Assembly (NCBI GenBank): GCA_024635485.1
Contig: JAGXIV010000005.1
Span: 1 to 45,216, forward strand
Direction: 5' to 3'
Source: a bacterium
GTDB taxonomy: Bacteria; Patescibacteriota; Gracilibacteria; BD1-5; UBA6164
Length of the DNA stretch: 45,216 bases
The notes beneath the pieces are model-generated. The model had not been told where the DNA came from, searched no databases, and saw nothing but the letters and a program-made list of their open reading frames with translations. The translations under genes and the position numbers were made by a program. Every line of letters starts with the position of its first letter. Position 1 is the stretch's first letter. This document shows, piece after piece, positions 7,612 to 31,791 of this stretch.

Positions 7612-8001
7612 TTACATTCTTCTCACTTTTTTCTTTCTACATCCATTATGAGGAACTGGAGTTACATCAAAGATTGCTCTAAGATCAACACCTCCTGAAA
7701 TAAGGCCTCTGATTGCTTGTTCTCTTCCTACCCCTATTCATTTTATGAAAACATCAACTGTTTCAAGTCCATGAAGAGATTTAGCTTTTTGAACTGCCTG
7801 TTCTGAAGTCATTTGAGCTGCATATGGAGTAGATTCTCTTGCACCTCTGAATCCTACTGATCCACCAGTTGCCCAAGATAATACATTTCCTTGTTCATCA
7901 GTAATACTTACAATAGTATTATTAAATGAAGCCATGATATGAGCTTGTCCAACTTGAACAATTTTTTTCGTTTTTTTAGATTTTTTAGTCTGAGTTGCCA
8001 T
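7612..8001 (-). CDS. rpsK: ribosomal protein S11
   Basis: It encodes 129 residues with [42 protein letters not shown], and the C-terminal [18 protein letters not shown] signature. TGA encodes the Gly of [12 protein letters not shown]. It starts 27 bases after the rpsM stop and is in standard order. Confidence 0.96.
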
Positions 8002-8028
8002 AGATCTATGATTGTATATAAATATAAA

Positions 8029-8397
8029 CTATTTTTTCTTTCCTGCAATTGCAACAGATTTCCCTTTTCTTGTTCGAGCATTTGTTTTAGTATTTTGCCC
8101 ACGAACTGGAAGTCTTTTTTGATGTCGAACACCTCGATACGATCTAATTTCTTGAAGTCTTTTAATATTTCAAGAAATAAGTCTTCTTAGGTCTCATTCA
8201 ACAATATGTTCTTTAATAGTGTCTCGAATAAGATCAAGTTCAGCTTCAGAAAGATCATCAATTTTTCGAGTTCTTTCGATTTTAACTTGATCTAGTATCA
8301 CTTGAGCTTTCGCTCGTCCGATACCGTATATATATGTGAGAGCAATCTCTGCATGTTTTCCACTTGGGATGATTACACCGGCAATTCTAGCAGCCAT
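8029..8397 (-). CDS. rpsM: ribosomal protein S13
   Basis: It encodes 122 residues: [23 protein letters not shown] with the helix-two-turn-helix [11 protein letters not shown], then [23 protein letters not shown] and the basic tail [20 protein letters not shown] glycines occur in EGDLRR and ISGNIK. It stops at TAG. It follows rpmJ by 29 bases, matching the usual infA-rpmJ-rpsM-rpsK-rpsD-rpoA-rplQ block. Confidence 0.96.
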
Positions 8398-8426
8398 AGT
8401 TTTCTAATAGATATATAAATAAAATA

Positions 8427-8555
8427 TTACCCTTGTCTTTGTTTATGTTTTGGGTCACTTGAACATATAACTCGTACACATTTTCTTCATTGAAATCTTC
8501 TGAGTACAATTTTACAGTTCTGACAAATTTTTTTCGCTGATGGTCTTACTTTCAT
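8427..8555 (-). CDS. rpmJ: ribosomal protein L36
   Basis: It encodes 42 residues starting MKVRPSAKKICQNCK and ending PKHKQRQG, the L36 signature. Probable zinc ligands are C11, C14, C31 and H37, so it is the zinc-binding type. The spacing is a few residues longer than the common 37-38-residue form because of an insertion near RRFQGRKCVRV. One TGA glycine lies at FQG, so a standard-code search misses the gene. Confidence 0.94.
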
Positions 8556-8583
8556 ACAATATATTATAAATAATTATTTAAGT

Positions 8584-8808
8584 TTATTTTCTATAAGTGA
8601 TTCTTCATTTTCATGGGTCATATGGACTGAGTTCTATAGTAACTTTATCTCATTCGATAAGTTTTATAAAATTTTTTCGCATATTTCCACTGAGATGTCA
8701 ACGAACAATACCTCATCATAAATCCTCTGGTAATTGAACTTCAAAAACCAGGCCGGGTAGAGATTGGATTATTGTACCTTCTACCTCTATTTTATCTTCT
8801 TTCGACAT
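8584..8808 (-). CDS. infA: translation initiation factor IF-1
   Basis: It encodes 74 residues, a single OB-fold: MSKEDKIEVEGTIIQSLPG, VRGHLSGNMRKNFIKLIEGDKV and SPYDPGKGRITYRK. Six glycines, including a TGA-TGA pair in the DLGGG loop, are encoded by TGA, all where IF-1 commonly has Gly or a turn. It precedes rpmJ by 28 bases. Confidence 0.95.
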
Positions 8809-23848: not shown

Positions 23849-25093
23849 CTATTTATCATTTGTAGAACAAATATACTTTTCAGTAAAGTACAATGCATTA
23901 CAAGCTCCTACTCCTGCATCATTAAAAGTAATGTTATTTATATCTGCTACACTTCGAGTCTGGAGCCAACAATTTGCTGTATAATCTCAACTTGGTTCTG
24001 AATAGGGTGTATCTCGTAGCCACCAATCTCAACCTCATATTGCCTTCCAATCTGAAGCGGTCACTGAGTTCATAGCTACTGAAGTATAACTTCAACCACT
24101 ACTTGGTCTAGAAATTCCAGGTATAACATAAAAATAACTACTCCCATATTTTGTGATAACAGATTGAAGAAATTCTTTTGTTCTTGGAACAAATATATCC
24201 ATTCAAAGTTCTTTACAACTATTATTATCAGTAGATTTAAGTGTTCTTATTCAAGTATCAATTGGATAGAGTGTATATCAACCCCCATCAGTAGTCATAT
24301 CACAATATACTTCTAGTATATCTCAAGTTTTTGTTTTTATGACATATTCTCAATTTTTATCTTTAAAACGAGGTTGATCCTGCAATAGTCTGAGGCAACT
24401 AGAGTATTTTTTCCATCAAGATTGAAAAATCGAGTTTAATAATTGTAAATCAGATCAAGTACCACTTATACTTGATTGGTTCGATACCAAAGAAGTAAAC
24501 AATTCATTGGTGTTTATTATATCAATGTATCAAGATCAACTTGAAACTGAATTTAGTGCCTGTGCAGGTGTATTGATTGTAGATTTTTCTCATGAAATGA
24601 GTATTCATAACTCACTTCCATATACTTTAGGAAATCTTGTTTCATAATTTGCTGCATGTAATGTATTTCATCCTTGAAAAAGATATGAGCTCGTACTTCC
24701 TCTTTCTTCCATAAGCGCAAGAAGTTGAAGTTTTTTTCTACTTTTTGTCACAAAGTAAGTATAGAAAGAATCATCTTTTGGGTCTTTTCACCCATTTGTG
24801 TAGTCAATAGTTTCAAGTACATCGATTCAAACATATCATTGATATGCAATCACATTAGAAGCTCAGCTTGCAGTAATCTCTACATAATCATCTGGGAGAG
24901 GTAAAGATTTATTTGTTGCATACACTTGAAGAGAATCTGAGAGTTTTGTTAGTTGAGAAAAACGATTAGAATCCCTTGCTCCAGTGAGATAATTTGAGTA
25001 AGAAACAAATCCTATAGTAGAAAGAATTCCAACAATAGTAATAACTACGATGAGTTCTACAAGTGTAAAAGCGTGCTTCGTAATTTTATACAT
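23849..25093 (-). CDS. type IV prepilin-like protein with fibrinogen-like YCD...GGG domain
   Basis: It encodes 414 residues. A class III prepilin signal KHA-FTLVELIVVITIVGIL is present, with Glu at +5 and Ala instead of Gly at -1. This is followed by the pilin alpha-helix and a variable region. From about residue 250 it has SCLRLLQDQPRFKDKNGEYV then LEVYCDMTTDGGGYTLYPI, the conserved start of the bacterial fibrinogen-like YCD..GGGW domain, and ends with a Trp/Tyr-rich part (WKAIGGWWLRDTPYS) containing several Cys. Exposed fibrinogen-like domains usually bind glycans or proteins, so this may be a tip adhesin or minor pilin. No other pilus-assembly genes are nearby. TGA encodes more than twenty glycines. 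The stop is TAG. Confidence 0.82.
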
Positions 25094-29340: not shown

Positions 29341-30243
29341 TTATATTCCATTTTGCATATATTGCAAAAAGTTTTTAATATCAACTCTGAGTTTAGTAAT
29401 ATCCCAATAATAACTCTTGAGTGACGCTTCACCTCAAAAATTTGTTTTTTGAAATTGTCAGTCTGTAAAAATCTCTTCAGCAAAAAAATTATATTTTCGT
29501 GCAAGACTGATTTGATTGAGAGATTTTTGATAAAAATCCTCATTGTGGAGAATAAAGTACAAATAACTTTCAGCATAATCCTCAAATTGGTTCGTAAGAG
29601 CATAACCAGATACAAAATCATTTGAGGATTGTCAGGCGCGAATTACGCTCAGTGATTTCCATGAGACATCATAAAATTTCTGACTGGTCTTATCTGTCTG
29701 CTCTCATCATGTATATATATCAAAATAATGTGCAAATTCATGAATAAATACACTCAAAAACTCTTCTTCTCCTAATTCTAAGGCTCCATATAAATGAATA
29801 GTATGGGCTCGCATCCGTCACCGTACATCTGATGTATTTTCATACATATATATTCCTAAGGTGCTAATACGAGGGAAAATATATTTTTGTTTAAGAAAAA
29901 CCTCCAGTAATGGACTGTAGGAATCTTGCATTTTTGCTTTCACACTTCATGGAAAATATCGGAAAAATATTTCAGGAATATTATGATCTAAAAACTTATT
30001 TTTATATTGTTCAAATATAATCTTATTCACAGTACTCGATATCTTATCTTGATTCATTGTATCAAAACTAGCAAAGTCTGATTCATGTGTTTCAAGAATA
30101 AGTTCTGGACTACTCAGATTGATAAATTGTTCTTCAGGATCATGAATTTTTGACGGAAAAAAAATTTCACTTCCGATAAAAATAAGAAGTGAACAGAGGC
30201 TTGTGTAGAGGACACAAAAAATAAATATTTGTTTCCCAGGCAT
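29341..30243 (-). CDS. membrane-anchored zinc metallopeptidase-like protein (HExxH)
   Basis: It encodes 300 residues. A single N-terminal membrane helix (residues ~5-28) is followed by an extracytoplasmic domain. HEFAH lies at 168-172 (FIHEFAHYFD), and a downstream acidic helix NQFEDYAESYLYF (~219-230) offers the third zinc ligand Glu, in the gluzincin pattern. It starts 6 bases after the stop of the pilin-type gene at 30250, so it is the last gene of a five-gene cassette. It may process or turn over the pilin-like proteins or other surface proteins; this is a guess from position. The family is not identified more exactly. TGA glycines are frequent. Confidence 0.75.
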
Positions 30244-30249
30244 GAAATA

Positions 30250-30657
30250 CTATGAGGTAAATGAAAATATAACTTCTACTATTATTCGTATCAATGCTCA
30301 CGTAACAACAATTGCTAGGAATCAAAGAATAGACCATTTTACTACATCTTTTCATTTTTTAATTCTTTCATCATCTCACAGTGAAATAGTCATAAGAAAA
30401 GCTCCATACACTATTGCACCCACGGATACAAGTGCAAGAAATGTAGCGAGTGCAGTGGTCCAATTCACAATTTGGTTTTTTACATTTCATTCAATCAATG
30501 TTGGCCCACTTGCATCTACTAAATCACTGTCAGATAAACATCCATCAAGAGAACTTCAGATGTTTCCATTAAAAGCACAATCAGCAGCTTCTACTGAGTT
30601 GAATCAAAAAGAAATCAGGAGAAGTAAAAATGTAAGTAAAAATGTGAAAAATTTCAT
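30250..30657 (-). CDS. VirB2/TrbC-like small two-helix protein (4)
   Basis: It encodes 135 residues. The signal peptide (FFTFLLTFLLLLISFGFNSVEA) is cut near AA-DC. A ~45-residue Cys-containing segment with Asp and Ser follows. Two C-terminal membrane helices (TTALATFLALVSVGAIVYGA and ILGFLAIVVTGALIRIIVEV) are joined by a short charged loop GDDERIKKGKDVV. Signal, two helices and a polar loop give the layout of conjugative pilins VirB2/TrbC. The loop is shared with the other three proteins of the cassette. It lies 12 bases after the previous gene. It stops at TAG. No function is proven. Confidence 0.75.
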
Positions 30658-30669
30658 AATTAATTTTAT

Positions 30670-31035
30670 TTAGATATCAATTCCAGCTACAAGTCTTACG
30701 AGAGCATATGCAAAAGCTACTATAAATATTCCAATTGCAGTATATATAAAACTGGTAATAGCTTTTTTAAACTCCTCAGGATTTCACCTTGCTGTGACAA
30801 GTCTTGCTCAAATAAAGAGAAACATAGCAATAGCAATCAATGCCATAAGGGCAAATATAGAATCTCTTACAAATGCAAGAATATAGTCAACCGTACTCAT
30901 CCCAGACTCTGTAGTAGTAAGCGCTGTATTAGAACTTACCGGAACTATTCCTGATTTTAGTTCTTCTTCACTGAGTGCAAAAGTTTGATATTGCATCGAA
31001 ACAAATAATCAGATACTTATATAAAAATATTTCAT
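30670..31035 (-). CDS. VirB2/TrbC-like small two-helix protein (3)
   Basis: It encodes 121 residues. An N-terminal hydrophobic stretch (YFYISIGLFVSM) ends near FALS as a likely signal, followed by a Ser/Thr-rich segment. Two membrane helices (DSIFALMALIAIAMFLFIGA and FIYTAIGIFIVAFAYALVRL) surround the loop RGNPEEFKKAITSF. Its ATG shares its A with the last base of the TAA of the preceding gene (TAATG), a sign of translational coupling. It has the same pilin-type plan as its neighbours, with the loop least like the others. Confidence 0.75.
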
Positions 31036-31394
31036 TAGATTCGGAAGTTATTAACTACATTTATGATAGACCAAGCTGCAACTGAAACAAATACTCATAC
31101 GAGAGACCAAATAATGACAGTTTTTGCTTTTTTTATTTTTTCTTCATCTCAACTAGAGATAAGATACATAATTCATCAAATCATAACAGCAATAACTGCA
31201 AAAATAGCAACATACTGGATAAGCGCAGCTATTATATTTCATAAGACTCCATAGATTTGATCTCAGCTTTCTATCTTACTATCCCCGCAACCTGGAAGTG
31301 CTCCACAACTTATATCTGGAACTGCAGCGTAACTTATAGATATATAAAAATTACAGAGAAGAAAAGCAGAGATACGTGAAATTATTCAATACAT
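31035..31394 (-). CDS. VirB2/TrbC-like small two-helix protein (2)
   Basis: It encodes 119 residues. The signal-like N-terminus (IISRISAFLLCNFYISISYA) cuts before AVPDIS. A short CGALPGCGD segment may form a disulfide. Two helices (LIQYVAIFAVIAVMIGGIMY and VIIWSLVGVFVSVAAWSIIN) enclose the loop SSGDEEKIKKAKT, the clearest copy of the shared motif. The start is taken at ATG 31394, 10 bases after the previous stop. This is the closest of the four to known VirB2/TrbC and pilin-like proteins of CPR genomes. Confidence 0.78.
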
Positions 31395-31404
31395 GAAACT
31401 TTTT

Positions 31405-31791
31405 TTAAGAGTAGAGTAAAAATGCAAAAAGACGAACTATAATACCAGCTGAGAGTGCGATAGCAAGAGAAATGAGTCCTGCCATAAAAATAGATTTTCA
31501 TTTAGAAAGAAATTCATCCTGCCCATGATAAATAATCATATATCATGCTCAGACCGTCATAATAAGTGCAGAAAAAACTCAAAAAACGATAATAATTTTA
31601 TCTAGAATACTTGCAAGGAAATTAGTAACCGTTCCACCTGCATCCTCGCTTATAAGACTTGTTCCACCAGGAGTCACACTTCAAACATCAATCGTAAAAT
31701 TAGGACTTCTAATATCATCAATCGCAAATCACGTCTGAATAGCAAAAAAGATTGCTGATATTAAAATACAGAAAAGAAGCAACTTTTTCAT
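31405..31791 (-). CDS. VirB2/TrbC-like small two-helix protein (1), first gene of the cassette
   Basis: It encodes 128 residues. The signal peptide (KKLLLFCILISAIFFAIQTGFA) is cut before IDDIRS. A Thr/Ser/Gly-rich segment precedes two membrane helices (IIIVFGVFSALIMTVGAGYM and IFMAGLISLAIALSAGIIVR) that enclose the loop YHGQDEFLSKGKS. The charged G-x-x-E...K-x-K loop resembles that of the downstream proteins. It is divergent from the glycosyltransferase gene at 31900, with 108 AT-rich bases between for both promoters. Confidence 0.75.

What the first reader, a model, noticed from the sequence alone, without database searches (positions are those of the whole stretch)
29341..31791. Five-gene cassette: four VirB2/TrbC-like two-helix proteins plus a membrane HExxH peptidase
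Four consecutive minus-strand genes each encode a protein of 119-135 residues with a signal sequence, two C-terminal membrane helices and a short charged loop between them (GQDEFLSKGK, GDEEKIKKAK, GNPEEFKKA, GDDERIKKGK). The genes are 10, -1 and 12 bases apart, and the metallopeptidase gene follows after 6 bases. Conjugative pilins have the same layout but usually come as one copy with VirB4/VirB6 homologues, none of which lies here. A set of diverged paralogues with a dedicated surface peptidase suggests a heteromeric filament or membrane assembly with its own maturation or turnover enzyme.
Basis: partly seen in the sequence, partly recalled or inferred. Interest (0 to 1): 0.78.

Follow-up and report, generated by a model that had tools for sequence, protein, structure and literature searches.

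The report
Four-subunit VirB2-like pilin operon
Tiny, probably host-dependent bacteria of one Gracilibacteria order carry an operon of four different pilin-like membrane proteins, each a separate old lineage kept in a fixed order, followed by a surface metallopeptidase; such pilin arrays are already known in these bacteria, but the fixed four-part set and its operon with a peptidase appear undescribed.

Summary
Three of the four pass the Pfam cut-off for T4SS_pilin (PF18895); the first is a weak TrbC match. Tandem VirB2-like arrays of 2-11 divergent pilins are published for Patescibacteria, and one is essential in a Saccharibacterium, so the kind is known. New here: (1) the same four-gene set lies directly upstream of the peptidase in 48 of 51 testable genomes of the order (three families). 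(2) The four pilins are four separate orthologous lineages kept in fixed order, which favours specialised subunits over an antigenic-variation reserve. (3) The peptidase is a class-wide Mx1/ATLF-like gluzincin that has no pilin array beside it in 40 loci from other families; even within the order the array survives without it. So it is a recruited partner, not an obligatory maturase. VirB4 is present in 58 of 60 genomes but at other loci. Best reading: a virB4-unlinked, four-subunit VirB2-like assembly of the Patescibacteria T4SS, with an accessory surface peptidase. Substrate, assembly and activity are untested.

The parts
31405..31791 (-). pilin 1: 128 aa, signal peptide, two-helix hairpin with loop GQDEFLSKGK
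   Evidence: TrbC PF04956 only weakly, E 0.012, below cut-off; separate clade of 48/48 in the tree, support 0.82; low-depth AlphaFold model shows helices 51-87 and 92-127
31035..31394 (-). pilin 2: 119 aa, two Cys in the N-terminal part (ISCGALPGC), loop GDEEKIKKAK
   Evidence: PF18895 E 7.8e-10, above cut-off; position-2 profile recovers held-out orthologues
30670..31035 (-). pilin 3: 121 aa, loop GNPEEFKKA
   Evidence: PF18895 E 2.6e-10, above cut-off; clade 48/48, support 0.99
30250..30657 (-). pilin 4: 135 aa, N-terminal Cys pair, loop GDDERIKKGK
   Evidence: PF18895 E 4.2e-6, just above cut-off; clade 48/48, support 0.94; two Cys before the hairpin in 41 of 48 orthologues
29341..30243 (-). 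membrane-anchored HExxH gluzincin, 300 aa: N-terminal transmembrane helix, HEFAHYFD (168-175) and NQFEDYAES (218-226)
   Evidence: weak PF15890 for this member; Mx1/Mx/ATLF across orthologues, best 4.8e-10; H168, E169, H172, D175, E221, D222, E225 invariant in 28 orthologues

Best explanation
An operon of four non-interchangeable VirB2/TrbC-like subunits of the chromosomal Patescibacteria type IV secretion machine, followed by an accessory surface metallopeptidase. Inferred steps: each pilin is exported through Sec, loses its signal peptide, and stays in the membrane as a two-helix hairpin with a short basic loop on the cytoplasmic side and a variable N-terminal part outside. Powered by the VirB4 ATPase encoded elsewhere, the four are assembled in a set composition (for example base, shaft and tip, or a mixed membrane ring) into a pilus or conduit for contact with a host or prey cell. 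The peptidase, anchored by its N-terminal helix with its catalytic domain outside the membrane, most likely acts near that assembly: trimming or removing pilins, or cutting surface proteins of the cell or its partner. Shown: gene content, order, family membership of three pilins, fixed orthology, distribution, and presence of VirB4. Inferred: assembly, function, and the peptidase's substrate.
For: PF18895 matches above cut-off for pilins 2-4. Same four genes in order directly upstream of the peptidase in 48 of 51 testable loci across three families. Profiles trained on family f2 place 119 of 120 f1 pilins and 8 of 8 f3 pilins by position. In the tree p1, p3 and p4 are clades of 48/48 and p2 groups 43/48. 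The three genomes whose peptidase lies elsewhere, and G044, which has none, still carry p1-p2-p3-p4 in order. One VirB4 (CD1110-family profile, above cut-off) in this genome and orthologues in 58 of 60 genomes. Peptidase catalytic motifs invariant. An essential array of six divergent VirB2-like pilins is reported in Southlakia epibionticum (PMC12857230).
Against: The array is not linked to virB4. Pilin 1 fails the family cut-offs. No VirB6 was found by PF19590. The hairpin model gave no significant match in PDB, and a profile of the pilins found no solved pilin, so assembly into a pilus is unproven. The peptidase's neighbours also include RNase J in 25/30 f1 and 16/16 f2 loci, so part of the linkage could be general synteny.
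Confidence: 0.55

Rival explanations
1. The array is a reserve of variant pilins for switching surface variants or host range, as proposed for Bartonella Trw and suggested for Patescibacteria arrays.
For: Published suggestion for Patescibacteria arrays (PMC12102498); low identity within arrays, 20.9% on average here.
Against: Members are fixed in number, order and lineage across three families; recombining or expanding repertoires should mix positions and vary in number.
Confidence: 0.12
2. The peptidase is a dedicated pilin maturation or turnover enzyme.
For: Operon position with 6-base spacing in the window; linked in 48 of 51 loci; retained in the two f3 loci, where neither the glycosyltransferase nor RNase J was detected alongside.
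Against: Class-wide gene with no adjoining co-directional pilin array in 40 other loci; not found in G044 although the array is intact there; apart from the array in G019, G026 and G034.
Confidence: 0.22
3. The peptidase is an independent surface protease for nutrition or for interaction with a host or prey cell that was captured into the pilin operon for co-expression.
For: Standalone in other families; related by profile to Mx1/ATLF-type gluzincins; host-dependent lifestyle proposed for Gracilibacteria (PMC11452946).
Against: Stable tight linkage with pilins in this order needs a reason beyond chance; substrate unknown.
Confidence: 0.4
4. The four proteins are not pilins but small two-helix membrane proteins of another machine (channel or holin-like).
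For: Pilin 1 is below the pilin cut-offs; a weak holin match for pilin 2; hairpin fold unspecific; no linked T4SS genes.
Against: PF18895 above cut-off for three of four; PF18895-type proteins lie near virB4 in many Patescibacteria (PMC12102498).
Confidence: 0.15

Closest known systems
VirB2 pilin arrays of Patescibacteria (PMC12102498)
   Same: PF18895-type small pilins, 2-11 in tandem, divergent (about 25% identity), in genomes with a Patescibacteria-clade VirB4
   Different: This set is unlinked to virB4, has a fixed composition of four orthologous lineages across an order, and ends in a peptidase gene; the text read for this report mentions neither feature
Essential six-pilin array of Southlakia epibionticum (reported in PMC12857230)
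   Same: Several structurally similar, sequence-divergent VirB2-like pilins
   Different: There it belongs to the T4SS locus; no linked peptidase is mentioned in the passages read
Bartonella Trw pilin amplification
   Same: Several VirB2 copies in one system
   Different: There the copies are sequence variants proposed to vary the surface (PMC12857230, PMC12102498); here they are ancient, position-fixed lineages
Peptidase_Mx1 / ATLF-like gluzincins (Pfam PF15890, PF07737)
   Same: HExxH plus downstream NxxEDxAE motif; Mx1 matched by 26 of 28 orthologues
   Different: The window member is below the Pfam cut-off; variable N-terminal region; linked to pilins

Membership tests
T4SS_pilin (PF18895) / VirB2-like pilins | Profile match above the curated cut-off, pilins 2-4 | tested here: met
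   39.1, 40.7 and 27.2 bits vs 26.6
T4SS_pilin (PF18895) / VirB2-like pilins | Profile match above the curated cut-off, pilin 1 | tested here: not met
T4SS_pilin (PF18895) / VirB2-like pilins | Signal peptide plus two transmembrane helices with a short basic loop | tested here: met
   Sequence; hydrophobic N-terminal stretch in 188 of 191 and AXA-like site in 185 of 191 members by a simple rule; helices in the pilin 1 model
T4SS_pilin (PF18895) / VirB2-like pilins | Assembly into a pilus or secretion conduit | not testable with these tools
   Needs microscopy or a structure
Patescibacteria T4SS | VirB4 ATPase in the same genome | tested here: met
   C5 gene; NCBIfam NF045971 347 bits, above cut-off 325; orthologues in 58 of 60 genomes. 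Membership of the Patescibacteria VirB4 clade was not tested by a tree
Patescibacteria T4SS | Pilin genes near virB4 | tested here: not met
   Array on C10, virB4 on C5; in the single-contig genome G024 the array with its peptidase and virB4 are about 1 Mb apart by coordinates. A common but not universal feature: 1135 of 1948 assemblies in PMC12102498
Patescibacteria T4SS | VirB6 homologue | tested here: not met
   PF19590 no match in this genome; PMC12102498 reports VirB6 homologues as scarce or absent in Microgenomatia and Gracilibacteria
Peptidase_Mx1 (PF15890) | Profile match above cut-off | tested here: inconclusive
   Window protein 18.4 bits vs 25.6; 26 of 28 orthologues match at E <= 0.01, best 4.8e-10
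Peptidase_Mx1 (PF15890) | Gluzincin zinc site HExxH with a downstream Glu | tested here: met
   H168, E169, H172 and E221/E225 invariant in 28 sequences; activity not testable

The most novel reading that the evidence does not exclude
A T4SS-type filament or conduit built from four obligate, different VirB2-like subunits in set positions, with an operon-encoded surface gluzincin that processes or releases them, used for contact with host or prey cells in one Gracilibacteria order.
Probability: 0.15. Interest if true: 0.72.

Novelty: new variant of a known kind. Interest (0 to 1): 0.45.

Why it matters
Multi-pilin arrays are common and, in one case, essential in Patescibacteria, yet it is not known why several pilins are needed. 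The fixed four-lineage composition shown here turns 'variation or specialisation' into a testable question, and names an enzyme whose linkage can be followed. It would bear on how uncultured, probably episymbiotic bacteria contact their hosts. Without experiments it remains a genomic pattern.

Tried and rejected
Structure of the peptidase: model from two sequences too poor to use (pLDDT 39.5). Fold search with the pilin 1 model: no match better than E 0.87, unspecific hairpins. Profile of eight pilins against PDB: nothing relevant. Phage and defence libraries: nothing convincing. Promoter and terminator scan: no more sites than shuffles. PF12846 as a VirB4 marker in relatives was too insensitive, so the own VirB4 protein was used instead. 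Neighbours of the peptidase in other families of the class: no recurrent functional partner, mostly housekeeping genes. A search of genome contigs with the peptidase gave one relative, from a Candidatus Gracilibacteria MAG.

Full report
Observation. Read with TGA as glycine (table 25), the five minus-strand genes are exactly as described: 128, 119, 121, 135 and 300 residues with gaps of 10, -1, 12 and 6 bases. The window is contig C10 of a 1.14-Mb, 39-contig genome, 93% complete.

Families. Pilins 2, 3 and 4 pass the Pfam cut-off for T4SS_pilin (PF18895), pilin 4 only just; pilin 1 has only a weak TrbC/VirB2 match. NCBIfam gives sub-threshold matches of pilins 2-4 to a pilin-like conjugal transfer protein. 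The genome has 16 PF18895 matches at E <= 1, ten of them listed as over the cut-off. They include two proteins on contig C26 with three pilin domains each. The peptidase has an N-terminal membrane helix and HEFAHYFD...NQFEDYAES. It is below cut-off for Mx1 by itself, but 26 of 28 orthologues match Mx1 and 13 match ATLF at E <= 0.01. A weak sequence match to the catalytic part of anthrax lethal factor (peptidase family M34) fits the same superfamily and says nothing about substrate.

What is already known. Tandem VirB2 arrays of 2-11 pilins, about 25% identical, are published for Patescibacteria: 441 arrays in 383 assemblies, interpreted as possible host-range versatility (PMC12102498). An essential six-pilin array in Southlakia epibionticum is described in PMC12857230. 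The array as such is therefore not new. In the passages read I saw no mention of a linked peptidase or of fixed orthology; supplementary tables were not readable here.

Conservation in the order. The peptidase is found in 57 of 60 genomes searched (own plus relatives), from three families. Of 56 loci examined, five are cut by a contig end, leaving 51 testable: 48 have the four pilins in the same order and strand directly upstream, and three do not. Profiles trained by position on family f2 assign 119 of 120 f1 pilins and 8 of 8 f3 pilins correctly. Trained on f1, they assign positions 2-4 of f2 well (47 of 48) but position 1 poorly (7 of 16), and they miss f3 position 1. In a tree of all 192 pilins, positions 1, 3 and 4 are clades of 48 of 48 and position 2 groups 43 of 48. 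Same-position identity across families is 25-34%, against 21% between positions within an array. The domains are short, so single branches are weakly resolved, but the three tests agree. So four lineages existed before the families split and stayed in place, which speaks against an exchange repertoire.

The peptidase is recruited. Across the class it is found in 246 of 288 genomes. In the phylum sample, the matches outside the class are five weak ones. In 40 loci from other families of the class no co-directional pilin array adjoins it; two loci have pilin-profile matches nearby on the opposite strand. Genomes of three other families (G114, G194, G068) carry related five-pilin arrays elsewhere, next to a gene that reads as methionyl-tRNA synthetase. 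In G019, G026 and G034 the array is intact but apart from the peptidase. In G044 the array is intact with no peptidase found, and an RNase J-like gene lies further downstream. RNase J flanks the peptidase in 25/30 f1 and 16/16 f2 loci, so synteny alone explains part of the linkage. In the two f3 loci neither RNase J nor the glycosyltransferase was detected alongside, yet the pilin-peptidase operon remains.

The machine. A single VirB4 is encoded on C5 and has orthologues in 58 of 60 genomes. A VirD4-like candidate is on C31, cut by the contig end. PF19590 (VirB6) finds nothing, in line with what the literature reports for Gracilibacteria. The pilin operon is thus, by inference, a distant part of a genome-encoded T4SS.

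Mechanism and limits. I favour four specialised subunits assembled with the distant VirB4, with the peptidase as an accessory surface enzyme. Assembly, topology, substrate and activity are inferences. The pilin 1 structure model is a helical hairpin with no specific match, and the peptidase model is unusable.

Noticed in passing
L094:6819-7724 and 7737-8711 (own genome, contig C26): Two proteins of 301 and 324 aa each hold three PF18895 pilin domains in one chain; long frames with several pilin domains also appear in G066 and G194. Possible stand-ins for the missing VirB6.
   Followed up: partly
L149, L150, L151: Five-gene pilin arrays next to a metG-like gene in other families of the class, with a position-1-like first gene and a position-2-like third gene: perhaps the older form of the four-gene set.
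   Followed up: partly
window 30250-30657 and 31035-31394: Paired cysteines between signal peptide and hairpin in pilin 4 (41 of 48 orthologues) and pilin 2 (28 of 48) suggest external disulphides.
   Followed up: no
window 23849-25093 and L094:5079-6404: Type IV pilin-like genes with N-terminal FTLVELIVVITI and large C-terminal domains; the two share a near-identical first part and then differ.
   Followed up: no
L074, L075, L079, L082, L089 (family f2): Peptidase orthologues are shorter (about 230 aa) and seem to begin with a cleavable signal peptide instead of a membrane anchor plus long linker.
   Followed up: no
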